64,000 nucleotides of DNA from Streptomyces sp. NBC_01754 (GTDB lineage Bacteria > Actinomycetota > Actinomycetes > Streptomycetales > Streptomycetaceae). Within the stretch, counting starts at the first letter, position 1. The number at the start of each line of letters is the position of its first letter. Shown here one piece after another: positions 52,749 to 63,979 of this stretch. Below the pieces are notes generated by a model, which was given only the letters and a program-made list of their open reading frames with translations, searched no databases and was not told where the DNA came from. A program made the position numbers and the translations under genes. The stretch covers positions 6,510,001 through 6,574,000 of the forward strand of contig NZ_CP109132.1 in the NCBI RefSeq assembly GCF_035918015.1. The letters are read 5' to 3'.

Positions 52749-53732
52749 TCAGCAGGGGTCGCGCCACACGTCGAGGTCGAGGCGTTTGCGCATCGAGGAC
52801 AGGCGCAGCGCACGGGACTCGGCGCAGAAGTCCTCGGTGCGTTCCTCGTACTCGGCGTGGAAGACCGCCTTGCCCGCCGCGACGAAGGGCTTCAGCCTCG
52901 CGCACTCGCCGTACTGCGCGCACTCCTCGTTCACCGCGAAGTCGAAGTCCCCGACCAGCTGGGGGATCTGGGCGAGGTCGTTCTTGAGGCCGACGGACAG
53001 CCCCCGTTCATGGGCGATGTCCGCGATCATCCTGTTGTACGCCAGCTGGTCGGCTCCGGTCAGCGGGAAGCCGGTGCGGTTCGCGTACCCCTCCAGCAGA
53101 TCCGGTTCCACCGCGTCGAAGCCCTTGTCGCGGCACATGTCGACCCGGCGCTCCATGATCGGGCGCAGCACGTCCAGCCGGCGGATGTCGAGCCAGCGTT
53201 CGCCCTCCCAGCCGTTGGACTCGCCCCGTACGGACCGCGGGAAGGAGCCCTGGTCCGGCCGGAAGTCCTCCCAGGCACCGGCGTTCAGGTAGCAGATCAC
53301 CTTGCGCCCGTCGGCGTGCAGGCGGGCCACGTCCGCCGCGGAGTTCTCGAACCCGTCGATGTCGTAGACCGGCACGTCCACCGAGGGATCGACCTTGCCG
53401 TCCAGCTGCCACTGCCAGGCCAGCCCCGGCCGGGGACGCCACCGGTCCGCCGCGGAGGAGCCGGGGGAGCGGGTCGTGGGGGCGGCGCCCGGGGTGGTGG
53501 TGCCGGCGGAGGTGGGTGTCCCGTGGCTCCCGCCGCCGTCGTCCTTCGCGTCCTCGCTCCCGCCGTCGTCCGGGGCCCCGGTGTTCGCGGAGGCGGACGG
53601 CGACGCCGCCGGGCCGCCGGCCGTGTCCCCCCGCCCCGGGGTCTCCCCGGCGGAGCACCCGGCCAGGACCACCGCCACGAGAGCGGCGGCCGTCAGTACG
53701 TACGCCCGGCGCGGGCGCGCCCCGGCGGTCAC
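52749..53732 (-). CDS. GH114 family endo-alpha-1,4-polygalactosaminidase-like lipoprotein
   Basis: The protein has 327 residues from the GTG at 53732, overlapping the previous stop. The lipoprotein signal ends VVLAGCSAG. A Gly/Ser/Thr-rich linker (residues 30-95) precedes the GH114 domain: WQWQLDGKVDPSVDVPVYDIDGF, then KVICYLNAGAWED, WEGERWLDIR and GFDAVEPDLLEGY. The Asp of the first block and the Glu/Asp of the last are the expected catalytic pair. GH114 enzymes (fungal Ega3) cleave alpha-1,4-galactosamine stretches. Last gene of the operon; it may trim or release the polymer. Confidence 0.88.
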   Translation of the reverse strand: MTAGARPRRAYVLTAAALVAVVLAGCSAGETPGRGDTAGGPAASPSASANTGAPDDGGSEDAKDDGGGSHGTPTSAGTTTPGAAPTTRSPGSSAADRWRPRPGLAWQWQLDGKVDPSVDVPVYDIDGFENSAADVARLHADGRKVICYLNAGAWEDFRPDQGSFPRSVRGESNGWEGERWLDIRRLDVLRPIMERRVDMCRDKGFDAVEPDLLEGYANRTGFPLTGADQLAYNRMIADIAHERGLSVGLKNDLAQIPQLVGDFDFAVNEECAQYGECARLKPFVAAGKAVFHAEYEERTEDFCAESRALRLSSMRKRLDLDVWRDPC

Positions 53733-54388
53733 ACCGACCCGCTCAATGCCGGTGTCAACTCGGACCAGGGGTTGGGCAGTTCACCGGTGACCGGCCCCGA
53801 CACGCCCGCGCCCCGTTCCCGGGCGGTGCGGACGGCCAGCGGGATCAGCGCGGGCGGCACCCCGTAGACGAGATGGCAGAACCGCTCGGGCGACTGCCGC
53901 ACGGACCACCGGGGCCGGCTGAAGGCCGACACATAGGTCGACCAGTGTCCCTCGAACGTCACGACGAGATCGGCGGCGCGGAGGTACCCCGGCGAGGGGT
54001 GGACGCCCGGATTGAGTGCCACCAGTGGGACTCCTGATCGTTTGATCCGCCGTACCAGCCGTCGGCAGGCGGGGAGTTCGGCCGGACCCGAGGGCGTGCG
54101 GTCGAGGAAGCAGCCGTCCGTCCCGTACCAGTCGCGGTGCCGGCCCGCCTCTTCCGCGACGTCGGAGGGCGGGCGCTCGCCGTAGTCGGTGTCCACGTAG
54201 CCGAACACGTGGACACCGGCCGACCGCAGCGCGCGGGCGGCGGAGACGAAGGCGGGGTCGGGGGACGTCCCCGGTCCGCTCGCCGGGTTCAGCACCACCC
54301 CGTGGATCCGGTCCGCGGCCGCGATCAGCCGGTGCCAGGCGCCGGGGTCCTCGGCCGGATGGACGTAGAGGGGAACGAGGAAGTTCAT
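53729..54388 (-). CDS. Spherulin-4/GH135-like (Sph3-type) protein
   Basis: A 219-residue TIM-barrel protein of the spherulation-specific family 4. Family landmarks are FLVPLYVHP, VVLNPASGPG, HVFGYVDTDYG, WYGTDGCFLDRTP, VALNPGVHP and VVTFEGHW. The fungal member Sph3 is an N-acetylgalactosaminidase needed for galactosaminogalactan synthesis, with an Asp-Glu pair in the FLD(E) block; here the second residue is Arg. No signal peptide is visible, so it may act inside the cell or be exported otherwise. It overlaps both neighbours by four bases. Confidence 0.85.
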   Translation of the reverse strand: MNFLVPLYVHPAEDPGAWHRLIAAADRIHGVVLNPASGPGTSPDPAFVSAARALRSAGVHVFGYVDTDYGERPPSDVAEEAGRHRDWYGTDGCFLDRTPSGPAELPACRRLVRRIKRSGVPLVALNPGVHPSPGYLRAADLVVTFEGHWSTYVSAFSRPRWSVRQSPERFCHLVYGVPPALIPLAVRTARERGAGVSGPVTGELPNPWSELTPALSGSV

Positions 54389-55320
54389 GGGGTACGGACA
54401 CCTTCCACCGGCGCGGACGGCGTCTCGGCCCCGGACGCCGCCCACAGCGCGGCCGACGAGTCGTCCAGGGACCAGGCCGGCCGCCACCCCAGGGCGGTAC
54501 CGGCCGCCGTGCTGTCGGAGCACTGCCACGAGACCCCCTCCGAACGGGCCGAGCCGCCCTCCCGCACCGCTTCCTCGATCCGCCCCCGGAACCCGGCGGT
54601 CCTGACCAGCGAGTTCACCAGCTCCCGCACCGGAACGGCCCGGCCCCCGCCGATGTTCAGGATACCGGGCGACGGACCCGGCACGGTGACCGCCAGGACG
54701 GCCGCCCGGGCCACGTCCCGTACGTCCACGAAATCGCGGTACGCCGACAGGTCCCCGAGCCGGAGCACCGCCGCCGGGTCCCGGCCCGCCGCGCGCAGCA
54801 GCCCGGCCACCCGCCCCGGCAGTCCGGCGGGCGGCGCGCCGGGGCCCACCGGATTGCCCACGCGCAGCACCACCGCGTCCAGCCCGGACGAGGTCACCGC
54901 CACCGTGCCGGCCAGTTTGGTGGCACCGTACGGGGAGACCGGCCGGGTGGCGTCCGCCTCGGTCACGCGGACCCCCTCGGCGCCCGGTCCGTACTCCGCG
55001 GCGGACCCGAGGTGCACGAGGCGGGCCCCGGGCGCCGCACGCCGCAGCGCGGCGCACAGTACGGCGGGGCCACGGGCGTTGACCTCGGCCAGCTCCACGG
55101 CGTCACCACCGACGGCACCGGCGCAGTTGACCACCGCGTCGGGCGCCGCCGACGCCAGGGCCCCCGCCAGCGCGTCGACGCCGACGTTGGCCAGGTCGAC
55201 AGGGAACTCCGCGCCGGGCGAGCGGCCCGCGCGCAGGAGCACCGCGTCCGGCAGGTGGGCCAGCGCCCCGGCGACATGGCCGCCGAGATAGCCGGTGTGG
55301 CCGAGGACGAGAACACGCAT
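54385..55320 (-). CDS. NAD-dependent epimerase/dehydratase (nucleotide-sugar, first)
   Basis: A 311-residue extended SDR. It has the N-terminal GHTGYLGGHVAGAL dinucleotide motif, VNCAGAVGGD, LVHLGSAAEYG and the catalytic YGATK. The C-terminal nucleotide-sugar part includes ILNIGGGRAVPVRELV. It probably epimerises or reduces an NDP-hexosamine. In fungal galactosaminogalactan clusters the comparable gene is the UDP-glucose/GlcNAc 4-epimerase Uge3. Overlaps the spherulin-4 gene by four bases and follows the nucleotidyltransferase by seven. Confidence 0.88.
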   Translation of the reverse strand: MRVLVLGHTGYLGGHVAGALAHLPDAVLLRAGRSPGAEFPVDLANVGVDALAGALASAAPDAVVNCAGAVGGDAVELAEVNARGPAVLCAALRRAAPGARLVHLGSAAEYGPGAEGVRVTEADATRPVSPYGATKLAGTVAVTSSGLDAVVLRVGNPVGPGAPPAGLPGRVAGLLRAAGRDPAAVLRLGDLSAYRDFVDVRDVARAAVLAVTVPGPSPGILNIGGGRAVPVRELVNSLVRTAGFRGRIEEAVREGGSARSEGVSWQCSDSTAAGTALGWRPAWSLDDSSAALWAASGAETPSAPVEGVRTP

Positions 55321-55327
55321 GGTGAGG

Positions 55328-56041
55328 TCAGGCTCCCTTGAGCAGCAGCGACTTGCGGCTGGTGAACTCCGCGTTCGCCTGGTCGTAGTCGTCCGGGCGC
55401 CCTATGTCCAGCCAGTATCCCTCGAAGTCGTAGGCGTGCGGGAGGTTCTGGGCCTTCAACAGGTCGAGTACGAGTTCGTCGAACCCCAGGGGCAGCCCGG
55501 GGGTGTAGGGGCCCAGGGTCGCCCGCGAGAGACCGTAGACCCCCATGGAGACGCGGTAGTCCATGCTCGGCTTCTCGGTGAAGGCGACGACCCGGCTCTC
55601 GTCGGTGGTCAGCACCCCGAAGTCGATGTGCACCTTGCGGGCGTACGTGGCGATCGTCAGCGGGGCCCCGGACGCCTGGTGGCGGCGCAGGACGTCGGCG
55701 TAGTCGAGGTCGGTGAGGATGTCGCCGTTCATCACGAGGAACGACTCGGGAAGTCTCTCGCGCAGGGCGAGCAGGGGCCCCATCGTGCCGAGCGGGCTCT
55801 CCTCGGTCGCGTAGTCGATGTCCAGCCCCCACTGGGAACCGTCGCCGACATAGGCGCGGATGATCTCCCCCAGATGGCCGATCGCGAGGGTGCAGCTGGT
55901 GAATCCGGCGTTCACGAGTTGCCGCAGCACGATCTCCAGGATCGCGTGCTGGTCACCGATCGGCACCAGGGGCTTGGGCAGCGCGGTGGTGTAGGGCCGC
56001 AGCCGGACGCCTTTGCCACCGGCCAGGATCACTACGTGCAT
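55328..56041 (-). CDS. Sugar-1-phosphate nucleotidyltransferase
   Basis: The protein has 237 residues from the ATG at 56041, with GGAGG five bases upstream. NTP_transferase fold: the signature LAGGKGVRLRPYTTALPKPLVPIG binds the nucleotide, FLVMNGDILTDLDYADVL carries the metal-binding Asp, and the end has YDFEGYWLDIGRPDDYDQAN. It activates a hexose or hexosamine 1-phosphate to an NDP-sugar; nucleotide and sugar cannot be told from sequence. It presumably feeds the adjacent dehydratase and epimerase. Confidence 0.9.
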   Translation of the reverse strand: MHVVILAGGKGVRLRPYTTALPKPLVPIGDQHAILEIVLRQLVNAGFTSCTLAIGHLGEIIRAYVGDGSQWGLDIDYATEESPLGTMGPLLALRERLPESFLVMNGDILTDLDYADVLRRHQASGAPLTIATYARKVHIDFGVLTTDESRVVAFTEKPSMDYRVSMGVYGLSRATLGPYTPGLPLGFDELVLDLLKAQNLPHAYDFEGYWLDIGRPDDYDQANAEFTSRKSLLLKGA

Positions 56042-56085
56042 GGGTTCCTCCATCGTCGACGTGGTGCGTGGTCGTGCCGGACGGG

Positions 56086-57087
56086 TCAGACGTTGTAGAT
56101 GCCGGTCTTGTAGCGGGCCAGGTTGGCCGGGTCCTGGAAGAACGCGGCCGTGCGCGCGAGGCCGTCCTCCAGGTCGTGGGCGGGTGCCCACCCGGTGGTC
56201 TCCCGCAGCCGGGTCGCGTCGGCGACGAGCCGCATCACCTCGGAGGCCGCGGGCCGTACGCGCTCGGCGTTCTCGCGGACCTCCACCTCGGTGCCGGTCA
56301 CCTTGCCGATCAGGGTGACCAGGTCACCCACGGATATCTCGCCGCCGGTCCCGGCGTTGAAGGTCCGGCCCACGACCTGCCCGGCGTCGGCCGTTCCGAC
56401 GGCGAGGAACGCCCGTGCCGTGTCCTGGACGTAGGTGAAGTCACGGGTCGGCCGCAGATCGCCGAGGGTGATCGTGCGCTCCCCGGCGGCGAGCTGGCCG
56501 ACGACGGTGGGGATCACCGCCCGCATGGACTGCCTCGGACCGAAGGTGTTGAACGGGCGGAGCGTCACCACCGGGGTGTCGAAGCTGGCGTGGTAGCTCT
56601 CGGCCAGCCGGTCCGCGCCCGCCTTCGAGGCGGCGTAGGGGGACTGGGTGTGGATGGGGTGGTCCTCGGTGATCGGCACGGTCCGCGCGGTGCCGTACGT
56701 CTCGCTGGTGGACGTGTGCACGAGCCGGGGCGTACCCAGCGCGCGTACCGCCTCCAGCACGTTCAGCGTGCCGGTGACATTGGTGTCCACGTAGCTGTGC
56801 GGGGCCCGGTAGCTGTACGGGATCGCGATGAGGGCCGCCAGGTGGTAGACGCAGTCGGCCCCTTCGGCGAAGCCGCGTACCGAGCCCGGGTCACGCACGT
56901 CGCCGAGGACGATCTCGACCTCGGCGAGCACGTCCTCGGACAGGGTCTCCAGCCAGCCGTACGAGGAGAAGGAGTTGTACTGGGCCATGGCCCGCACCCG
57001 GTGTCCGGCGGCCACGAGGGTTTCGACGAGGTGCGAGCCGATGAATCCCTCGGCCCCGGTGACGGCGGCGAGCGGTGTGGAGGTCAA
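56086..57087 (-). CDS. NAD-dependent 4,6-dehydratase/epimerase (nucleotide-sugar, second)
   Basis: A 333-residue extended SDR. The cofactor motif is VTGAEGFIGSHLVETL, followed by YHLAALIAIPYSYRAPHSY, the active-site HTSTSETYGTA (Thr/Ser region) and YAASK. RPFNTFGPRQSMRAVIPT and GRTFNAGTGGEISV contact the nucleotide sugar. It resembles LegB/GDP- or UDP-hexosamine 4,6-dehydratases. With the nucleotidyltransferase it would make a modified NDP-hexosamine for the polymer. Confidence 0.88.
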   Translation of the reverse strand: MTSTPLAAVTGAEGFIGSHLVETLVAAGHRVRAMAQYNSFSSYGWLETLSEDVLAEVEIVLGDVRDPGSVRGFAEGADCVYHLAALIAIPYSYRAPHSYVDTNVTGTLNVLEAVRALGTPRLVHTSTSETYGTARTVPITEDHPIHTQSPYAASKAGADRLAESYHASFDTPVVTLRPFNTFGPRQSMRAVIPTVVGQLAAGERTITLGDLRPTRDFTYVQDTARAFLAVGTADAGQVVGRTFNAGTGGEISVGDLVTLIGKVTGTEVEVRENAERVRPAASEVMRLVADATRLRETTGWAPAHDLEDGLARTAAFFQDPANLARYKTGIYNV

Positions 57088-57205
57088 GGTGACTGTTCCT
57101 TTCGGTGGTGGTCTGAGAGGGCGACCGGGGTGGGTCGAGGGGGCGGTGCGAACCGCCCTCCCCGTCGGACGGGCCGCGGCCGGGGTGGGTACGCGGGAGC
57201 GGGGG

Positions 57206-58579
57206 TCAGGCGTGGGCCGAGGGCCGCCCCAGGGTGCGCAGGGCCCATGCCCCCAGCACCACCGCCGCCGCCCCGTGGCAGAGGGACAGGGCGAGCAGGT
57301 TCCGCTCCGTGCCGGTCACGGTGAGCGCGCCCACCGCGCCGGCCGCCGCGAGGCACACCACGGCCGGCACCCACGCCGTCCCGAACGCCTGGAGCAGCAG
57401 CGCGGTCCACAGCGTCGCCGCGATCAGCAGCAGCCCCACCGGTTCGGCGCCGGTGAGCAGCGCGGCGGGCACCAGGGGCGAGAGGTAGGCGAGCAGACAG
57501 AGCACGAGGATCCCGGCGGAGCGCAGCCGGAACCCCGCGGGGGTGGCGGTCGCCCGCAGGGCCGCCACGGACATCCCCCGGTACCGGTACAGCAGCCACT
57601 CGGCGAGCCCCATGCTCACCGTCAGCACCACCACCGCGTACGGCTGGTGCCGCCCCTCCGTCAGCACCAGCACCCCGGCGCCCAGACCGAACAGGCCGTA
57701 CGGCAGCGAGAGCACCGGACGAGGCCGGGCGGCCCCGGGCGCCGGCGCCGTGGCGAGCGGGCCCCTGAGCGCCCAGCCCGCCGCGCCGACCGTCCCCAGG
57801 ACCGACAGCAGCGGCATCCCGGCCCGTGCCAGGACTCCCGGCTCCCACCACGGCAGCACCGCCGCCACCACGACGACCGGGACGAGCGCCGCGAGCAGCA
57901 GCCGCTCCCGGCCCAGCACCAGCAGCACACCGGCCCCCGCCAGGTACACCGACTGGCCGGCCACGAACAGGGCCGTGGGACCCGGGCCGGCCACCGCGGT
58001 CCCGGCCGCCGTCGCCAGCACGGCACCCAGCGGAGCCCCCACCAGCAGGGTCCGGCCGCACTCCCGGGGGCCCGAGGCCAGCCGGAGGTAGGCACGGTGG
58101 CCCAGCGCCTGGCCCCAGGCCCAGGAGACGAGCCCGGCCACGATCAGCGCGGCCACGCCCCTGCCGTTCGCCCACAGCGGCCCGGTGAGCAGGTGCGCGA
58201 GCCCCGGAAGGGCGAACAGCGCCCCGCGCAGGGCGCACCGGACGTGGTCGGGCCGCCACGGGTCGGCCGGCCGGGGCTGCTCCGGGAAACTGCGGGGCAC
58301 CCGCTCGTGGAGCGCCGCGGCGAGCGAGAACAGGTCAGGGTGCCCGTAGGTGTTCCGGACGGCCTCCACGGCCAGCCCCTCCGACTCCAGCAGCGCCGCG
58401 ACCTCGTACGGATGCACGGCCGGACCGATACGGTCGGTCAGCTCCGCGGCGAGCGCGTCGACCGCGTCCTCCCGTGAGCTCCGGCCGGGCAGCCGCAGCG
58501 CCATGGTCCGGTCGTCGGCCAGCCGCAGGGCCAGCGTGTCGTCCGAGCCGCCGGGTTCCAGCGCCAGCGGTCCGCTCAT
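57206..58579 (-). CDS. Polytopic membrane protein of the exopolysaccharide operon
   Basis: The protein has 457 residues from the ATG at 58579, overlapping the upstream glycosyltransferase stop by four bases. An N-terminal soluble region of about 120 residues (ALLESEGLAVEAVRNTYGHPDLFSLAAAL) precedes about ten to twelve hydrophobic segments rich in Ala, Leu and Gly. No known family is recognised. Its place after a PelF-like transferase corresponds to PelG, a polytopic membrane protein of pel loci, so polymer synthesis or export across the membrane is a reasonable inference. Confidence 0.7.
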   Translation of the reverse strand: MSGPLALEPGGSDDTLALRLADDRTMALRLPGRSSREDAVDALAAELTDRIGPAVHPYEVAALLESEGLAVEAVRNTYGHPDLFSLAAALHERVPRSFPEQPRPADPWRPDHVRCALRGALFALPGLAHLLTGPLWANGRGVAALIVAGLVSWAWGQALGHRAYLRLASGPRECGRTLLVGAPLGAVLATAAGTAVAGPGPTALFVAGQSVYLAGAGVLLVLGRERLLLAALVPVVVVAAVLPWWEPGVLARAGMPLLSVLGTVGAAGWALRGPLATAPAPGAARPRPVLSLPYGLFGLGAGVLVLTEGRHQPYAVVVLTVSMGLAEWLLYRYRGMSVAALRATATPAGFRLRSAGILVLCLLAYLSPLVPAALLTGAEPVGLLLIAATLWTALLLQAFGTAWVPAVVCLAAAGAVGALTVTGTERNLLALSLCHGAAAVVLGAWALRTLGRPSAHA

Positions 58580-60240
58580 CCCGCCACGCTCCTGACGAAG
58601 GGCCCGGCCGCCGCACCGGCGACCGCCGGGCCCGTACCGGGGACAAAGGGTCCGGTACCGGGAGCGAGGGGGCCCGGGCCGGCGGCGGTGTCCGCGTGCG
58701 TTCCGGACGTTCCGTACGATCCCCGGGCCCGGTCGCCGTGGACGTCCCCCGCGCCGGAGGAGGCCGCCGGTGCGTACCCGGCCGCGTGGACTCCCGTCCG
58801 GTCCTCGGAGATCTCCAGGTAGATCGAGCGGAACGTGTCCACGGTCTGCCGCAGGGTGAACTGCTCGATCACCCTGAGCCGGGCCGCCTCGCCCATCCAG
58901 CGCCTGCGCCCGGGGTCCCCGAGCAGTTCCAGGGCGGCCGCGGCCATCGCGGCCGGGTCGCGCGGCGGCACGACGAGCCCACTGTCCCCGACGGCCTCCC
59001 GGACCCCGCCGACATCCGTGGAGACGGTGGCCCGCCCGCAGGACATCGCCTCGATCAGCGTGAAGGGGAATCCCTCGCTGATGCTGGACAGCATGACCAC
59101 GTTGCCCGCCGCGTAGGCGTCCGTGATGTCGTCCACCCGTCCCTCGAAGGTGACGGCGTCCCCGTGGCCGAGCCCGGCGGCCAGCTCCTCGCACCGCTGC
59201 CGGTAGCCCTCACCGCCGCGCGGTGTGCCGCCGAACAGCCGCAGGCGGGCGGACGGCACCCGCTCGCGCACCAGGGCGAAGGCACGGATCAGCGTCTCCA
59301 GGTCCTTGATCGGGTCGACCCGGCCCGCCCAGCTCAGCGTGGGCACGCCGGGTTCGGGCCCGGCCGGCGGGAAGGCCGCCGGGTCCACCCCGTTGTAGAC
59401 CGTGCGGATCAGCGCGGGGTCGGCCCCGCCCTGTTCCTCCCACAGCCGGTTGTAGCGGTTGCCCGGTGTGATCAGGGCCGCCTTCCGGTAGGTCTCCTCG
59501 GCGAGCAGCCGGAAGAAGCCGAGGACGAGCGCTTTGACGGGCCACCGGTACGCGGCGGTGCGGTATCCGAGGTACCGCTCCCTGAGATAGACCCCGTGCT
59601 CCGTCAGCAGCAGGGGGACACCGTCGCGTTCGAACGCGGTGAGGCCCGGCAGCACGGCGATCCCGCCGCTCACCGCGTGTGCCACGCCGCTCCGGGGCGG
59701 AGCGGTGGCCAGGGGGCGCAGCGCGTGTTCGAGAAGGGTGGTGGCGGTCAGGGCGTCGTGCAGCGTGGGGCGGGCCTCACGCACCATCAGCCCCGGCCGG
59801 TTCCACACCGAGGTGAGCACCGAGATCGCCCGGTCGCTCCGGAGGAAGGGGCTGAGGAGCCCGTCCTGCGCCGCCCCGGCCATGGCGTACAGGGCCGGGG
59901 CGAAGCCGTCCTCGGCGCACGGGTCGAGCAGGGCCGTGACGAAGCGCTCGTACGCGACGACGAGCCGCCGCTCCCGCCGGCCGTTCGGCGGACGTCCTTC
60001 CGGGGCCGGACCCCACATGGGGACGGAGCGGACGCCGGTGACCTGGGCGGGGATGTCCCAGACGACGGGTTCCCTCCCGGTGCCGGTCACCGCGACGACC
60101 TCGAACTCGACGTCGGGCATGCCCCGGACGATCTGGTCGCACCAGACACTCACGCCGCCGTGGCTGTGGGGATACGTTCCTTCGGTGAGCAGGGTGACGC
60201 GGGTCTCGTGAGACCTTCGCGGACCGTGGAGAACGTGCAT
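58576..60240 (-). CDS. PelF-like GT4 family glycosyltransferase
   Basis: The protein has 554 residues from the ATG at 60240. The N-terminal LLTEGTYPHSHGGVSVWCDQIV is the PelF signature region. LLTEHGVYLRERYLG and ITPGNRYNRLWEEQGG continue the first Rossmann domain. The GT4 C-terminal domain has YNGVDPAAFPP, LSWAGRVDPIKDLETLI and the EX7E motif SEGFPFTLIEAMSCGRATV. A low-complexity Gly/Pro/Ala tail of about 60 residues follows residue 490. PelF is a cytosolic transferase that polymerises GalNAc/GlcNAc units from UDP-sugars. Second gene of the operon. Confidence 0.9.
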   Translation of the reverse strand: MHVLHGPRRSHETRVTLLTEGTYPHSHGGVSVWCDQIVRGMPDVEFEVVAVTGTGREPVVWDIPAQVTGVRSVPMWGPAPEGRPPNGRRERRLVVAYERFVTALLDPCAEDGFAPALYAMAGAAQDGLLSPFLRSDRAISVLTSVWNRPGLMVREARPTLHDALTATTLLEHALRPLATAPPRSGVAHAVSGGIAVLPGLTAFERDGVPLLLTEHGVYLRERYLGYRTAAYRWPVKALVLGFFRLLAEETYRKAALITPGNRYNRLWEEQGGADPALIRTVYNGVDPAAFPPAGPEPGVPTLSWAGRVDPIKDLETLIRAFALVRERVPSARLRLFGGTPRGGEGYRQRCEELAAGLGHGDAVTFEGRVDDITDAYAAGNVVMLSSISEGFPFTLIEAMSCGRATVSTDVGGVREAVGDSGLVVPPRDPAAMAAAALELLGDPGRRRWMGEAARLRVIEQFTLRQTVDTFRSIYLEISEDRTGVHAAGYAPAASSGAGDVHGDRARGSYGTSGTHADTAAGPGPLAPGTGPFVPGTGPAVAGAAAGPFVRSVAG

Positions 60241-60317
60241 GGATGGCTCCACCATCGGGTCTGTGGGGGCGTGCCGGTGTCCGGTGCCGGCCGGCACCGG
60301 GGGTGTGCGGGGACGGG

Positions 60318-62447
60318 TCAGCGCGTCTGCGCGTACGCGGCCGGCTCGGTGACGCCGGCGGGCACGGGGAGCGCGGGGACGGTGTCCGTCGGTTCCGCGG
60401 GCCGGTCCGGGGCCGTGGCCGGGGCGTCGGGGGCCGCCGGCAGGGTGAGAAGGAGCGGCTGTGTGCCGGACACGGTCCAGCCGGACACCTGACCCGCGTA
60501 GGCCTCGCCGAACGCGGCGGAGCCCTCGGAGGTACCGGTGGGCATCGTCGCGGGGACCGCCACACCGCCGGGTGCCCGCACGGTCACCGTGGAGCCGACG
60601 CGGTACGCCTCGGCCTCGCCCGCGTCGACCGCCGCACGCCAGGCCAGGCGGTTCCGCATCTCGGCGCCGATGTCCTCCATCCGCAGGTTGACCAGGGGAG
60701 TGTCGTCGGTGAAGAGCGCCGCGTACCCGTCGGTGACACCGCTCAGCACCGGGTAGGCGATGCGGTCCTCGGTCAGGTTCGACTGGTGGATGAAGTGCGG
60801 CCGGGGGTCGTTGCCGAGGACGTGTCCCAGTGCGATCCGCGTCTCCAGCGGCACGATGTGGTCGGTGTAGCCCGTCGCCGGGTCCAGCGGTTCCGGCAGG
60901 CAGGTGGAGGTGGCGGGGTTGTCCTCGCAGATCCCGCTGCCGCCCTGGGCGCGGGCCGTGTAGATCCAGTTGTACTCGTCGACCTGCTCGGCCGCGCGTC
61001 CGGCGTTGTAGAAGACGTTCATCGGGTAGCGCGACACCGTCAGCGCGGGGCCGACCTGACGCTGTCGCGGGTCACGGGAGTTGTCCGAGCCGATCCAGGT
61101 GATGCCGTTGTCGGCGAGGGCACCCGCCAGGTTCGGGTTGTCCTCGGGCTGCTGCGGGCTGACCTTCATCCCGGAGTGTTCACCGGTCACCAGCTCGCCG
61201 TGGCGCAGCGGAAGGCCGGCGGCCTCGCCCCAGGCGCGGTTGGTGGCGATCTCGTCGGAGATCTCGGCGCGCGTGACCCAGTCGACGTCCCCGCCGGGAG
61301 TGGTGGCGCAGGTCCACGGCACGGCGGTGGTGTCCTGTACGCAGCCGAGGAAGGAGTGCGTGTACGTGTGGTTGATCCAGCGGAACGCGTCACGGTCGGC
61401 GAGGAACCGGTCGGCCAGCGCGTCGGTGCCGCCGTTCTCCGCGCGGTGGTCGACGCTCCCGACGGCGTTGTACGCCAGATCGAAGGTCAGTGCGTGCGCG
61501 TCCTGCCACGCGGTAGCGTAGGTGACGTCGTCCGGCTCCATCCGGATCGGGTCGGGCTCCACGCTGCTGTCCGCGCAGTCCACGTCCCCCGGGGTGCAGT
61601 TGAGGTCGGAGTTCCACCGGTCGTCCGCGGCGAACACGTCGTCGACGTGGACGGCGAAGTAGTTGTGGGAGGCCCCCAGGTGGGTGCCGCCGGTCATCCA
61701 CTCCACGATGCCCCGGGCCAGCAGGCGGAACTGCTGCTGGTAGCGGTTGTAGACGAACGTGACGACGAGCTCCCGCCGCCCGTCGTGCCGGTACTCGCCC
61801 ACCAGCGATCCGCGGGTGGACTTCCCGGGGACCGGCGCGTCGACGTACGGGACGAAGTCGGCGCCGTCGGCCGGCGCGGAGAGGTAGGCGTAACTCTCCC
61901 CGACGGTCGGCGAGACGTCCTCGAAGGGCACGTCACCGTCGAGGTAGCCGAAGGGGCCCGCGAGGCCGGCCGCCGTCACCTCCGCCCGCACGCCGTCCAC
62001 ACTGCCCGCGTAGCCGTCGGTGTCCGGGGTCTCCAGCCCCACCGCCGGGCGGGCGTAGGTGTAGGCGTCCACCTGTGGGATCGCGTAGGTCCGCTCGTAG
62101 GCGGCGAGCGCCGCCATCTCGGCGGAACCGGCCGCGAAGGGGTTGTCGTTGGGCAGGACCACGGCCTGGAACCTCGCGCGGTCCCGTCCGTCCACCGTGT
62201 CCGCCAGGAAGCCGGCGTCGATCACCGGACGGCCGGGCGCGGTGAGATCGACCTCGGTGTAGGGCGTGCCGGCCGTTTCGAGCTCGGCGGCTATGGCGTC
62301 GGTCGCCGGGCCGCCGTCACTGACGACCAGGACCCGCAGATCGACACGGGGCGGCGTGCCGGCCGCCAGTGCCTGGCCCGCCGGTAATCCCAGCGACGCC
62401 ACGAGCGCGCCCACCGTGCACAAGGCCGCATACATTCTGCGCTTCAT
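60318..62447 (-). CDS. Secreted Agd3-like (CE18-type) polysaccharide deacetylase
   Basis: A 709-residue exported protein with a cleavable signal peptide (residues 1-29, ..AGQALAA). A long N-terminal part (VVSDGGPATDAIAAELETAG..) precedes the deacetylase domain. That domain has HNYFAVHVDDVFAADDRWN (metal-binding Asp) and RWINHTYTHSFLG (paired His), followed by GITWIGSDNSRDPRQ, SRYPMNVFYN and FIHQSNL. This order matches the fungal Agd3 family, which deacetylates GalNAc in galactosaminogalactan. Operon context with GH114 and spherulin-4 genes supports the same role. First gene of the operon, with GGGGAGGGA upstream of the ATG. Confidence 0.78.
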   Translation of the reverse strand: MKRRMYAALCTVGALVASLGLPAGQALAAGTPPRVDLRVLVVSDGGPATDAIAAELETAGTPYTEVDLTAPGRPVIDAGFLADTVDGRDRARFQAVVLPNDNPFAAGSAEMAALAAYERTYAIPQVDAYTYARPAVGLETPDTDGYAGSVDGVRAEVTAAGLAGPFGYLDGDVPFEDVSPTVGESYAYLSAPADGADFVPYVDAPVPGKSTRGSLVGEYRHDGRRELVVTFVYNRYQQQFRLLARGIVEWMTGGTHLGASHNYFAVHVDDVFAADDRWNSDLNCTPGDVDCADSSVEPDPIRMEPDDVTYATAWQDAHALTFDLAYNAVGSVDHRAENGGTDALADRFLADRDAFRWINHTYTHSFLGCVQDTTAVPWTCATTPGGDVDWVTRAEISDEIATNRAWGEAAGLPLRHGELVTGEHSGMKVSPQQPEDNPNLAGALADNGITWIGSDNSRDPRQRQVGPALTVSRYPMNVFYNAGRAAEQVDEYNWIYTARAQGGSGICEDNPATSTCLPEPLDPATGYTDHIVPLETRIALGHVLGNDPRPHFIHQSNLTEDRIAYPVLSGVTDGYAALFTDDTPLVNLRMEDIGAEMRNRLAWRAAVDAGEAEAYRVGSTVTVRAPGGVAVPATMPTGTSEGSAAFGEAYAGQVSGWTVSGTQPLLLTLPAAPDAPATAPDRPAEPTDTVPALPVPAGVTEPAAYAQTR

Positions 62448-63027: not shown

Positions 63028-63558
63028 TCACGGGCAGAGCACGCGGGTGTCCGGGGTGTGGACGGGGCCGCCGGTGGCGTTGGCGCTGTCGCTGAACTCC
63101 GCGTAGTAGTACGAGTAGAAGCCGATGTCGCCGTTGCATCCGGAGTCTTCCGCGATCTCCAGCGTCAGGGTGACCGTCCGGCTCTGGCCGGGGGGCACGG
63201 TCGTGCCGTAGTTGCCGCCGAGATCCGCGGGCCCGGTGCCGGAACAGGGGGTGCTGCCGGTGGCCGTGGTCAGGGCGCATCCGGTGAAGGCGTACTTCAG
63301 GTCGGGGCGCTGGGTGGTCAGATAGGTCGGGTCGATCGTCTGGTGGACGAACCAGATGTCGTAACTCCGGTTGTTGGTGAGGGTCATCGACAGGTTCACC
63401 GTGCCGCCGGGCACCGCCGTGGCGGTGTCGGTGGCGAAGGTCAGCTCGGCCGGCTCGGGCGTCTCGGCCGCGTTCGCCGCCGGGGCCAGGCCGAACAGGG
63501 CGAGGAGGAGGGCGAAGGCGGAGGCGAGTCCCAGGCGTCTCAACTGTGTGCGTGGCAT
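63028..63558 (-). CDS. Small secreted protein of unknown function
   Basis: The protein has 176 residues from the ATG at 63558; the longer open frame upstream is not protein-like. The signal peptide covers residues 1-31 (LGLASAFALLLALFGLAPAANA). The mature part is a beta-rich domain with ATAVPGGTVNLSMTLTNNRSYDIWF and VPPGQSRTVTLTLEI. This is the pattern of CARDB/DUF11-type immunoglobulin-like secreted domains, here with four cysteines. It may bind surfaces or the polymer; the function is unknown. Confidence 0.7.
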   Translation of the reverse strand: MPRTQLRRLGLASAFALLLALFGLAPAANAAETPEPAELTFATDTATAVPGGTVNLSMTLTNNRSYDIWFVHQTIDPTYLTTQRPDLKYAFTGCALTTATGSTPCSGTGPADLGGNYGTTVPPGQSRTVTLTLEIAEDSGCNGDIGFYSYYYAEFSDSANATGGPVHTPDTRVLCP

Positions 63559-63979
63559 GGCCGGGAGGCTATGAGAGCCGCGACGGGATCGTCTGCCGGT
63601 CGGCGGACCGGCGACGCGATGAGGCCGGAAGTGTTCGCGGTGTGAAGGTCGTGTGGCGTCGCCTTCACGAGGTGGCGTCAGGTGCGTTTCCGCACGATGC
63701 GAGGGGTTCCGAGCCGGTTCTCCCCCTCGTTCCGCGCCGCGCCGCGCCGCCGGGCGGATGTCTTCGAGGCAATGGCGCATACCGGACCACCGGACCCCCC
63801 CGGACGCCCCGCGACTCCTCGCGCGGGAGCCGGAGTCCTCGGGCCCTGGTCTCGTGCGGGCCTGGTCCGCCACCGGGCCGGGTGCGGCCCCGCACCGGGC
63901 CCTTCCCGGCCCGCTCGCGGGAGTGGACCGCTCGGGTACGAAACACGATCGGCTCCGGCCGGTTCACGGTGATGGTCTT
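63559..63979. other. Right-end region without a recognisable gene
   Basis: Frames on both strands between 63665 and 63972 are Arg/Pro/Gly-rich shadows without similarity or ribosome binding sites. Nothing can be supported here. Confidence 0.5.

What the first reader, a model, noticed from the sequence alone, without database searches (positions are those of the whole stretch)
52749..62447. Bacterial counterpart of the fungal galactosaminogalactan cluster, mixed with pel-type parts
Seen: one minus-strand operon with mostly overlapping genes encodes an Agd3-like secreted deacetylase, a PelF-like GT4, a polytopic membrane protein, a 4,6-dehydratase-like SDR, a nucleotidyltransferase, an epimerase-like SDR, a spherulin-4/GH135-like protein and a GH114 lipoprotein. 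Known: the Aspergillus galactosaminogalactan cluster combines Uge3, Agd3, Sph3 (GH135) and Ega3 (GH114), and pel loci make a related cationic GalN/GalNAc polymer with PelF. Inference: this actinomycete makes a partly deacetylated, cationic galactosamine-type exopolysaccharide with a machinery mixing both types, lacking a PelA/PelD/PelE set.
Basis: partly seen in the sequence, partly recalled or inferred. Interest (0 to 1): 0.85.

Follow-up and report, generated by a model that had tools for sequence, protein, structure and literature searches.

The report
Polysaccharide operon with swapped sugar supply
A conserved Streptomyces operon pairs the enzymes known from fungal and bacterial galactosamine biofilm polymers with a three-gene cassette that probably supplies a different, 6-deoxy amino sugar, so the organism may make a chemically new relative of those polymers.

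Summary
Eight minus-strand genes form one operon, as reported. Family searches confirm a PelF-type GT4, a GH114 enzyme and a spherulin-4/GH135-like protein. The 709-aa protein is a distant Agd3 (CE18/CBM87) homologue: below Pfam's cut-off alone, but its family profile finds Agd3 (6nwz) at E 9.9e-19 with four catalytic motifs aligned. The class is not new: PMC7229062 described bacterial agd3 operons with a GT, a multispanning membrane protein, GH114 and sometimes spherulin-4. My searches found nothing in print on three middle genes: a LegB-like 4,6-dehydratase, a nucleotidyltransferase and a reductase-like SDR. They occur in 65 of 65 assessable close loci, yet a sister operon type has the same chassis without them; nine genomes were seen to carry both. 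Outside Streptomyces 15 of 20 cassette-less operons have a GalE nearby; 0 of 88 distinct cassette loci do. One position beside the GH114 nucleophile (Asn to Leu/Ile/Val) and one in PelF (Ser/Thr to Val/Ile) follow the cassette; Agd3 and Sph4 show no such excess. Best reading: a Pel/GAG-like machine retuned to a 6-deoxy-N-acetylhexosamine made on the spot. The sugar is inferred. No structure model was obtained.

The parts
60318..62447 (-). Agd3-like secreted deacetylase, CE18/CBM87 type (P0001)
   Evidence: Signal-peptide-like N-terminus; Pfam Agd3_CE E 2.9e-4, below cut-off; family profile hits Agd3 6nwz at 9.9e-19 with CM1-CM4 aligned; D269, D270, H360, H364, R473, H554 in 93 of 93 distinct type I sequences
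58576..60297 (-). PelF-type GT4 polymerase (P0002); V51 in GGVSVW follows the cassette
   Evidence: NCBIfam NF038011 168.7 bits, cut-off 100; only match over that cut-off in the genome; position 51
57206..58579 (-). polytopic membrane protein, about 12 hydrophobic segments, no known family; proposed exporter (P0003)
   Evidence: No match for P0003 in Pfam, NCBIfam or PHROGs and none for its 58-row profile in the PDB; hydropathy; present in 65 of 65 loci
56086..57087 (-). LegB-like nucleotide-sugar 4,6-dehydratase (P0004, TTG start)
   Evidence: TIGR04180 453.1 bits, cut-off 475; TSE..YxxxK in 94 of 94 type I rows; TSETYG in 85 of 85 distinct sequences
55328..56041 (-). sugar-1-phosphate nucleotidyltransferase (P0005)
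   Evidence: PF00483 133.6 bits; top NCBIfam match a mannose-1-P guanylyltransferase, 134.5 bits against a cut-off of 440; PDB matches of mixed nucleotide type
54385..55320 (-). SDR, probable 4-ketoreductase (P0006)
   Evidence: PF01370; GSAAEYG..YxxxK without the dehydratase acid/base pair
53729..54388 (-). spherulin-4/GH135-like hydrolase without a signal peptide (P0007)
   Evidence: PF12138 119.8 bits; Sph3 5c5g E 3.9e-13; no hydrophobic leader in 111 of 111 related rows
52749..53732 (-). GH114 lipoprotein (P0008); L212 beside nucleophile D211
   Evidence: PF03537 286.5 bits; Ega3 E 2.4e-54; D211/E269 correspond to Ega3 D189/E247 (same 58-residue spacing)

Best explanation
The operon makes, exports, partly de-N-acetylates and trims a cationic cell-surface polysaccharide of the Pel/galactosaminogalactan kind, but from a different sugar. 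Proposed steps: P0005 activates a hexosamine-1-phosphate, P0004 removes the 6-hydroxyl (4-keto-6-deoxy intermediate), P0006 reduces C4 to give an NDP-6-deoxy-N-acetylhexosamine (an N-acetylfucosamine or N-acetylquinovosamine type), PelF polymerises it, P0003 carries it across the membrane in place of PelG, P0007 acts inside the cell on the acetylated chain, the secreted Agd3-like enzyme deacetylates it and the GH114 lipoprotein cuts the deacetylated polymer. Shown: gene families, conserved order, catalytic residues, the alternation with GalE, and the residues that follow the cassette. Inferred: every reaction, the sugar identity, the nucleotide, the exporter role and any biofilm role.
For: Family and motif evidence. 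First seven genes in the same order in 65 of 65 loci. A second operon type has the same chassis without the three cassette genes; nine genomes were directly seen to hold both types: G107, G193, G223, G232, G343, G351, G367 (found), G024 and G034 (found), all typed. Outside Streptomyces 15 of 20 cassette-less operons have a GalE within 1.5 kb; 0 of 97 cassette-bearing loci do, which are 88 distinct places because nine were fetched twice. Four of four such neighbours tested pass NCBIfam's GalE cut-off. P0004 has the [ST]SE..YxxxK signature listed for GDP-mannose dehydratase (PMC8987622 Table 1), and C. jejuni LegB is a GDP-GlcNAc dehydratase (PMC7439481). GH114 residue 212, distinct sequences: L/I/V in 58 of 59 cassette rows and N in 30 of 31 cassette-less rows, one gapped row on each side; the gapped cassette gene reads Val. 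In a further draw by GH114 itself (partly the same genomes, and including the window): L in 8 of 8 beside a cassette SDR, N in 17 of 17 beside chassis genes without it, N in 23 of 24 beside neither. PelF residue 51, distinct sequences: V in 96 of 96 cassette, T in 43 of 44 cassette-less with one gap; V/I in 19 of 19 readable type III rows and S in the 2 canonical PelFs next to PelG. On the PelF tree the cassette-less Streptomyces clade lies inside the cassette clade, so label and residue class both changed at least twice. Type III operons combine the same NTase and SDR with a different TSE-motif dehydratase.
Against: No chemistry and no structure model. Swapped-label control: the excess of cassette-following columns is clear only for GH114 (3 against 0), modest for PelF (9 against 5) and absent for Agd3 (3 against 3) and Sph4 (1 against 2). 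About two label changes on the PelF tree and two forced on the GH114 tree, so the statistics are thin. P0006 is not resolved between reductase and epimerase. P0005's nucleotide is not resolved. The cassette could add a second sugar rather than replace GalNAc; the genome has three GalE genes over cut-off elsewhere. Cassette-less Streptomyces operons have no GalE within 1.5 kb either (0 of 23). One orphan GH114 has the Leu without a cassette near it (L318/L340). The one type III GH114-like protein read at this position (L123, 31 bits, very divergent) has Thr, neither Asn nor hydrophobic. That positions 212 and 51 face C6 of the sugar is not shown.
Confidence: 0.6

Rival explanations
1. The polymer is ordinary poly-GalNAc/GalN as in Pel and fungal GAG; P0006 is a 4-epimerase and the cassette serves something else.
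For: The characterised GH114, GH135 and CE18 enzymes named in the papers I saw act on GalN/GalNAc polymers (PMC7229062, PMC12054363, passages and sections); the genome has three GalE genes elsewhere; P0006's PDB hits include epimerases.
Against: The cassette is kept in 65 of 65 loci of one operon type, absent from the other and never found with a GalE within 1.5 kb; P0004 has a dehydratase motif; two positions follow it.
Confidence: 0.2
2. The polymer is a copolymer or carries side chains: GalNAc backbone plus a 6-deoxy sugar from the cassette.
For: GalE is available elsewhere in the genome; fungal GAG itself is a mixed Gal/GalNAc/GalN polymer (PMC12054363, passages).
Against: Only one glycosyltransferase in the operon; the GH114 change lies beside the nucleophile.
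Confidence: 0.15
3. The residue pattern is shared ancestry with no link to the sugar; the operon's product is unknown.
For: Few independent label changes; no excess of such columns in Agd3 and Sph4; a type III GH114-like protein with Thr.
Against: The Streptomyces cassette-less clade has the polar PelF residue again although it lies inside the cassette clade; the positions lie next to the GH114 nucleophile and in PelF's GGVS loop.
Confidence: 0.05

Closest known systems
Aspergillus fumigatus galactosaminogalactan (GAG) cluster: Uge3, Gtb3, Agd3, Sph3, Ega3
   Same: CE18 deacetylase, GH135-like and GH114 hydrolases in one cluster
   Different: No integral-membrane synthase (PelF-type GT4 plus separate membrane protein); no Uge3-type epimerase but a dehydratase/NTase/SDR cassette; GH135-like protein lacks a signal peptide
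Bacterial agd3 operons of Bamford et al. 2020 (PMC7229062)
   Same: Cytoplasmic GT, multispanning membrane protein, GH114, spherulin-4 in some Actinobacteria: this operon belongs to that described class
   Different: The text seen (sections 13 and 14 and term searches) does not mention the cassette, two coexisting types or GalE exchange; its Fig. 8c and supplements could not be seen
Pel loci (Gram-positive pelDEADAFG, PMC7112168; PelADA, PMC13254593)
   Same: PelF-type glycosyltransferase; a three-domain deacetylase is also found in Gram-positive Pel
   Different: No PelG match in the genome; deacetylase closer to Agd3; membrane protein of no recognised family
Legionaminic-acid front end (PtmE/LegB) and GDP-6-deoxyhexose pathways (GMD/RMD)
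   Same: Nucleotidyltransferase plus LegB-like dehydratase, here with a reductase-like SDR
   Different: No aminotransferase or later legionaminic genes in the operon; embedded in a polymer operon. Likeness to PtmE is recalled, not tested

Membership tests
CE18/CBM87 (Agd3) | Sequence match to the family model | tested here: inconclusive
   Window protein 20.4 bits, cut-off 27.6; family profile hits 6nwz at 9.9e-19; 6 of 12 family members match CBM87_Agd3 and 5 of 12 Agd3_CE at E 0.01
CE18/CBM87 (Agd3) | Catalytic motifs CM1-CM4 (DD, HxxxH, R, H) | tested here: met
   93 of 93 distinct type I sequences; aligned to Agd3's motifs
GH114 | Pfam match, Asp nucleophile and Glu acid/base | tested here: met
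   286.5 bits; D211/E269 in 53 of 53 type I rows
GH114 | Asn after the nucleophile as in Ega3 (not a formal family criterion) | tested here: not met
   Leu in 51 of 51 distinct type I sequences; Asn in 11 of 11 type II
GH135 / spherulin-4 | Pfam match; Asp and Glu catalytic pair | tested here: met
   119.8 bits; both residues in 89 of 89 type I rows
GH135 / spherulin-4 | Membrane-bound like Sph3 (PMC12054363 passage; not a formal criterion) | tested here: not met
   No hydrophobic leader in 111 of 111 rows
PelF | NCBIfam NF038011 equivalog cut-off | tested here: met
   168.7 bits against 100
Pel locus | PelG exporter | tested here: not met
   PF16933: 0 matches in the genome, control rang in Thermotoga maritima; membrane protein shows no likeness to a 2-row PelG profile, a weak test
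Pel locus | PelD c-di-GMP receptor | tested here: inconclusive
   0 matches but no control rang
GAG cluster | UDP-glucose/GlcNAc 4-epimerase in the cluster | tested here: not met
   No GalE within 1.5 kb in 97 of 97 cassette-bearing loci, 88 distinct
LegB dehydratase | TIGR04180 cut-off | tested here: not met
   453.1 against 475
NDP-sugar 4,6-dehydratase, [ST]SE type | [ST]SE..YxxxK | tested here: met
   94 of 94 type I rows; signature from PMC8987622 Table 1

The most novel reading that the evidence does not exclude
Actinobacteria run two interchangeable versions of a Pel/GAG-like machine, one fed by GalE (poly-GalNAc/GalN) and one fed by an on-site 6-deoxy-hexosamine cassette, giving an alpha-linked, partly deacetylated poly-6-deoxyhexosamine (for example N-acetylfucosamine/fucosamine) not yet described. 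The synthase and hydrolase are retuned by replacing one polar residue each, at or near the active site, with a hydrophobic one.
Probability: 0.45. Interest if true: 0.75.

Novelty: new variant of a known kind. Interest (0 to 1): 0.55.

Why it matters
Galactosamine polymers shape biofilms of bacteria and fungi, and their hydrolases are studied as biofilm dispersers. A common soil genus apparently carries a second, chemically different version, in some genomes beside the usual one. That would give a natural experiment on how the polymerase and hydrolase recognise the 6-hydroxyl, a possible new cationic polysaccharide, and enzymes of new specificity. Genomes holding both types make it directly testable.

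Tried and rejected
Is the whole thing an unreported GAG counterpart? Rejected: PMC7229062 describes the class. Is the membrane protein PelG? No likeness found, but the test was weak. Did the spherulin-4 protein lose a catalytic acid (DR where Sph3 has DE)? Rejected: R/Q stands there in type I and Q in type II, while the accepted Asp and Glu are kept. PelD absence could not be tested. Literature: the searches listed no paper that I recognised as describing this cassette in such operons; most subscription papers are not held, and Bamford's Fig. 8c and supplements could not be seen. The cassette/residue analysis was exploratory: position 212 first came up in the scan and was looked at; the controls came afterwards. 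shares genomes with the earlier sets: by handle, 5 of 8 SDR-side and 10 of 17 chassis-side genes are new. On recounting nine of the 97 cassette loci proved to be the same place fetched twice; the counts of distinct sequences are given where I have them.

Papers, what I saw: PMC7229062 passages and sections 13 and 14; PMC12054363 passages and section 28; PMC7112168, PMC13254593, PMC8987622 and PMC7439481 passages only; all others search listings only.
Full report
WHAT IS THERE. The window lies in a 7.77-Mb genome whose nearest named relatives are Streptomyces. Eight minus-strand genes from 62447 down to 52749 encode, in order: an Agd3-like secreted protein, a PelF-type GT4, a polytopic membrane protein (MP), a LegB-like dehydratase, a nucleotidyltransferase (NTase), an SDR, a spherulin-4/GH135-like protein (Sph4) and a GH114 lipoprotein. 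Pfam and NCBIfam support the GT4 as PelF (168.7 bits, cut-off 100), Sph4 (119.8, cut-off 30.2) and GH114 (286.5, cut-off 27). Solved structures: Ega3 for GH114 (2.4e-54), Sph3 for Sph4 (3.9e-13).

THE DEACETYLASE. The 709-aa protein alone scores 20.4 bits to Agd3_CE, below the 27.6 cut-off, and finds nothing in the PDB up to E 1. A 12-row alignment of its family finds Agd3 (6nwz) at 9.9e-19, the next hit being at 0.014, and the alignment pairs its DD, HxxxH, R and H motifs with Agd3's CM1-CM4. These residues (D269, D270, H360, H364, R473, H554) are kept in 102 of 102 type I rows, 93 of 93 distinct sequences. Six of 12 family members match CBM87_Agd3 and five match Agd3_CE at E 0.01 or better.

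CONSERVATION. A scan of one genome per species gave 529 relatives of the deacetylase; the best 80 were returned, all Streptomyces. In the 65 of these with at least 8.5 kb after the deacetylase gene, the first seven genes are in the same order in 65 of 65; a GH114 hit, some partial, is found in 50 of 65. SDR and Sph4 overlap by 4 bases at the median.

WHAT IS ALREADY KNOWN. Bamford et al. 2020 (PMC7229062; sections 13 and 14 read) found Agd3 homologues in 45 bacterial species; all the operons they identified had a cytoplasmic glycosyltransferase and a multispanning membrane protein, GH114 was highly consistent, and spherulin-4 genes occurred in some Actinobacteria. Words beginning dehydratase, nucleotidyl, deoxy, fucos or PelF do not occur in that main text. 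Gram-positive Pel loci, some in Actinobacteria, are described in PMC7112168 (passages).

TWO OPERON TYPES. Relatives at 58-62% identity mostly have deacetylase, PelF, MP, usually Sph4 and often GH114, without the dehydratase, NTase and SDR (type II); L110 and L112 are exceptions that have them. Of 40 genomes of the window's genus in an even draw, 21 have a match. Seven of those (G107, G193, G223, G232, G343, G351, G367), and G024 and G034, were directly seen to hold both types. In G343 the type I deacetylase gene is only a remnant. In the PelF tree the Streptomyces type II rows form one clade (100/100) and the type I rows another (88/85); the one 'nocas' row among the latter, L185, is cut by its contig end.

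GALE EXCHANGE. In another actinobacterial family (f39), 73 of 300 genomes have a match, and in f35 8 of 186; f43 gave one genome. Of the loci fetched there, six carry the cassette (L244, L249, L250, L251, L254, L257; the SDR of L244 and L249 was confirmed) and 20 with a clear deacetylase and PelF do not. The SDR beside four of the cassette-less loci passes NCBIfam's GalE cut-off (327, 300, 311 and 419 bits against 262.3). With a GalE model made from seven sequences, a GalE lies within 1.5 kb in 15 of these 20 (13 on the same strand just upstream of the deacetylase gene, 2 divergent), in 0 of 25 cassette-less loci of the earlier sets (23 Streptomyces plus L121 and L200; L121 has one 2.4 kb away on the other strand), and in 0 of 97 cassette-bearing loci. 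Nine of the 97 are the same place fetched twice, so 88 are distinct. Six contig-truncated loci of L029-L108 and one LegB-only truncated locus are not counted. GalE is the counterpart of Uge3. The cassette thus appears to replace the sugar supply of the same chassis, although cassette-less Streptomyces operons have no GalE of their own nearby.

WHAT THE CASSETTE MAKES (inference). P0004 has TSE..YxxxK in 94 of 94 rows, the signature listed for GDP-mannose 4,6-dehydratase, while GalE has no acid/base pair there (Table 1 of PMC8987622, passages). C. jejuni LegB dehydrates GDP-GlcNAc (PMC7439481, passages). P0006 has an SDR triad without that pair, GSAAEYG, closest in that motif to GDP-6-deoxy-4-hexulose reductase 2pk3 among the five alignments shown, though its PDB hits include epimerases. 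P0005's nearest solved relatives are of mixed nucleotide type. NTase, 4,6-dehydratase and 4-reductase together would give an NDP-6-deoxy sugar. Because the deacetylase keeps its catalytic residues, an N-acetyl sugar is likely. A third operon type (type III: very divergent deacetylase, PelF, MP, NTase, SDR) has a different dehydratase that also reads TSE in the two examples examined, the same three-step logic.

RESIDUES THAT FOLLOW THE CASSETTE. In GH114 the residue after the nucleophile (D211; Ega3 D189, by the same 58-residue spacing to E269/E247; PMC12054363) is, in distinct sequences, Leu/Ile/Val in 58 of 59 cassette rows and Asn in 30 of 31 cassette-less rows, one gapped row on each side; the gapped cassette gene reads Val, and fungal Ega3 has Asn. 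The one type III GH114-like protein read there (L123, 31 bits) has Thr. In a draw by GH114 itself, Leu in 8 of 8 genes with a cassette SDR beside them (one is the window's), Asn in 17 of 17 with chassis genes but no SDR, and Asn in 23 of 24 with neither; the exception, L318, has no cassette within about 9 kb upstream (49 rows, from 30 loci returned by the search plus 20 places I chose, one of which gave no row; for the 30 'beside' means within 1.5 kb). In PelF position 51 (GGVSxW) is, in distinct sequences, Val in 96 of 96 cassette rows and Thr in 43 of 44 cassette-less rows with one gap, Val/Ile in 19 of 19 readable rows of 20 type III PelFs, Leu in L123, and Ser in two canonical PelFs next to PelG. 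On a 50-row PelF tree both the cassette and the residue class need two changes, both forced by well-supported branches: the cassette-less Streptomyces clade (100/100) sits inside a cassette clade (98/96) and has the polar residue again. The GH114 tree is less well supported: three changes, two forced. Control with labels swapped: GH114 3 columns against 0, PelF 9 against 5, Agd3 3 against 3, Sph4 1 against 2 (strictest of three thresholds). So the signal is in the hydrolase and, modestly, the synthase; the deacetylase and Sph4 show none. Polar to hydrophobic at both sites suits loss of a hydroxyl, but contact with C6 is not shown, and that the GGVS loop of PelF lines the active site is recalled from GT4 enzymes in general, not tested.

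OTHER ANATOMY. MP has about 12 hydrophobic segments and an acidic N-terminal region of about 110 residues. P0003 matches no Pfam, NCBIfam or PHROG family; stray single-member Pfam matches at E 0.009 or worse among its relatives look like chance; its profile finds nothing in the PDB and no likeness to a two-row PelG profile (weak test). The genome has no PelG match. Sph4 has no hydrophobic leader in 111 of 111 rows, so it probably acts in the cytoplasm, unlike the deacetylase and GH114.

VERDICT. A real, widespread operon of a published class, with a sugar-supply module that I did not find described. I rate it a new variant of a known kind. The chemistry is a testable prediction.

Noticed in passing
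G000 C1, about 0.10-0.32 Mb and 7.42-7.64 Mb (outside the window): GalE-profile hits come in mirrored pairs at the two chromosome ends, many in giant ORFs (about 2500-9900 aa), which looks like long terminal inverted repeats carrying modular synthases.
   Followed up: no
L124 (G016) and L194 (G343): Type I operons with only a remnant of the deacetylase gene; G016 has a lone deacetylase gene elsewhere (L113) and G343 a type II operon with a full-length one (L193).
   Followed up: partly
L247, L248, L271-L273, L275-L289: A third operon type with a very divergent Agd3-like protein (about 80-100 bits), PelF, MP, NTase, SDR and a different dehydratase.
   Followed up: partly
L320-L339: Further GH114 genes, mostly lower-scoring, stand without chassis genes around them in the places fetched; 19 of 19 readable copies have Asn after the nucleophile.
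   Followed up: partly
L318/L340 (G1146): An orphan GH114 gene with Leu after the nucleophile and no cassette within about 9 kb upstream.
   Followed up: partly
window 63028-63873, minus strand: An ORF for a small secreted-looking protein lies just upstream of the operon; not analysed.
   Followed up: no
P0007 and its relatives: Spherulin-4/GH135-like proteins of these operons lack a hydrophobic leader in 111 of 111 rows.
   Followed up: yes
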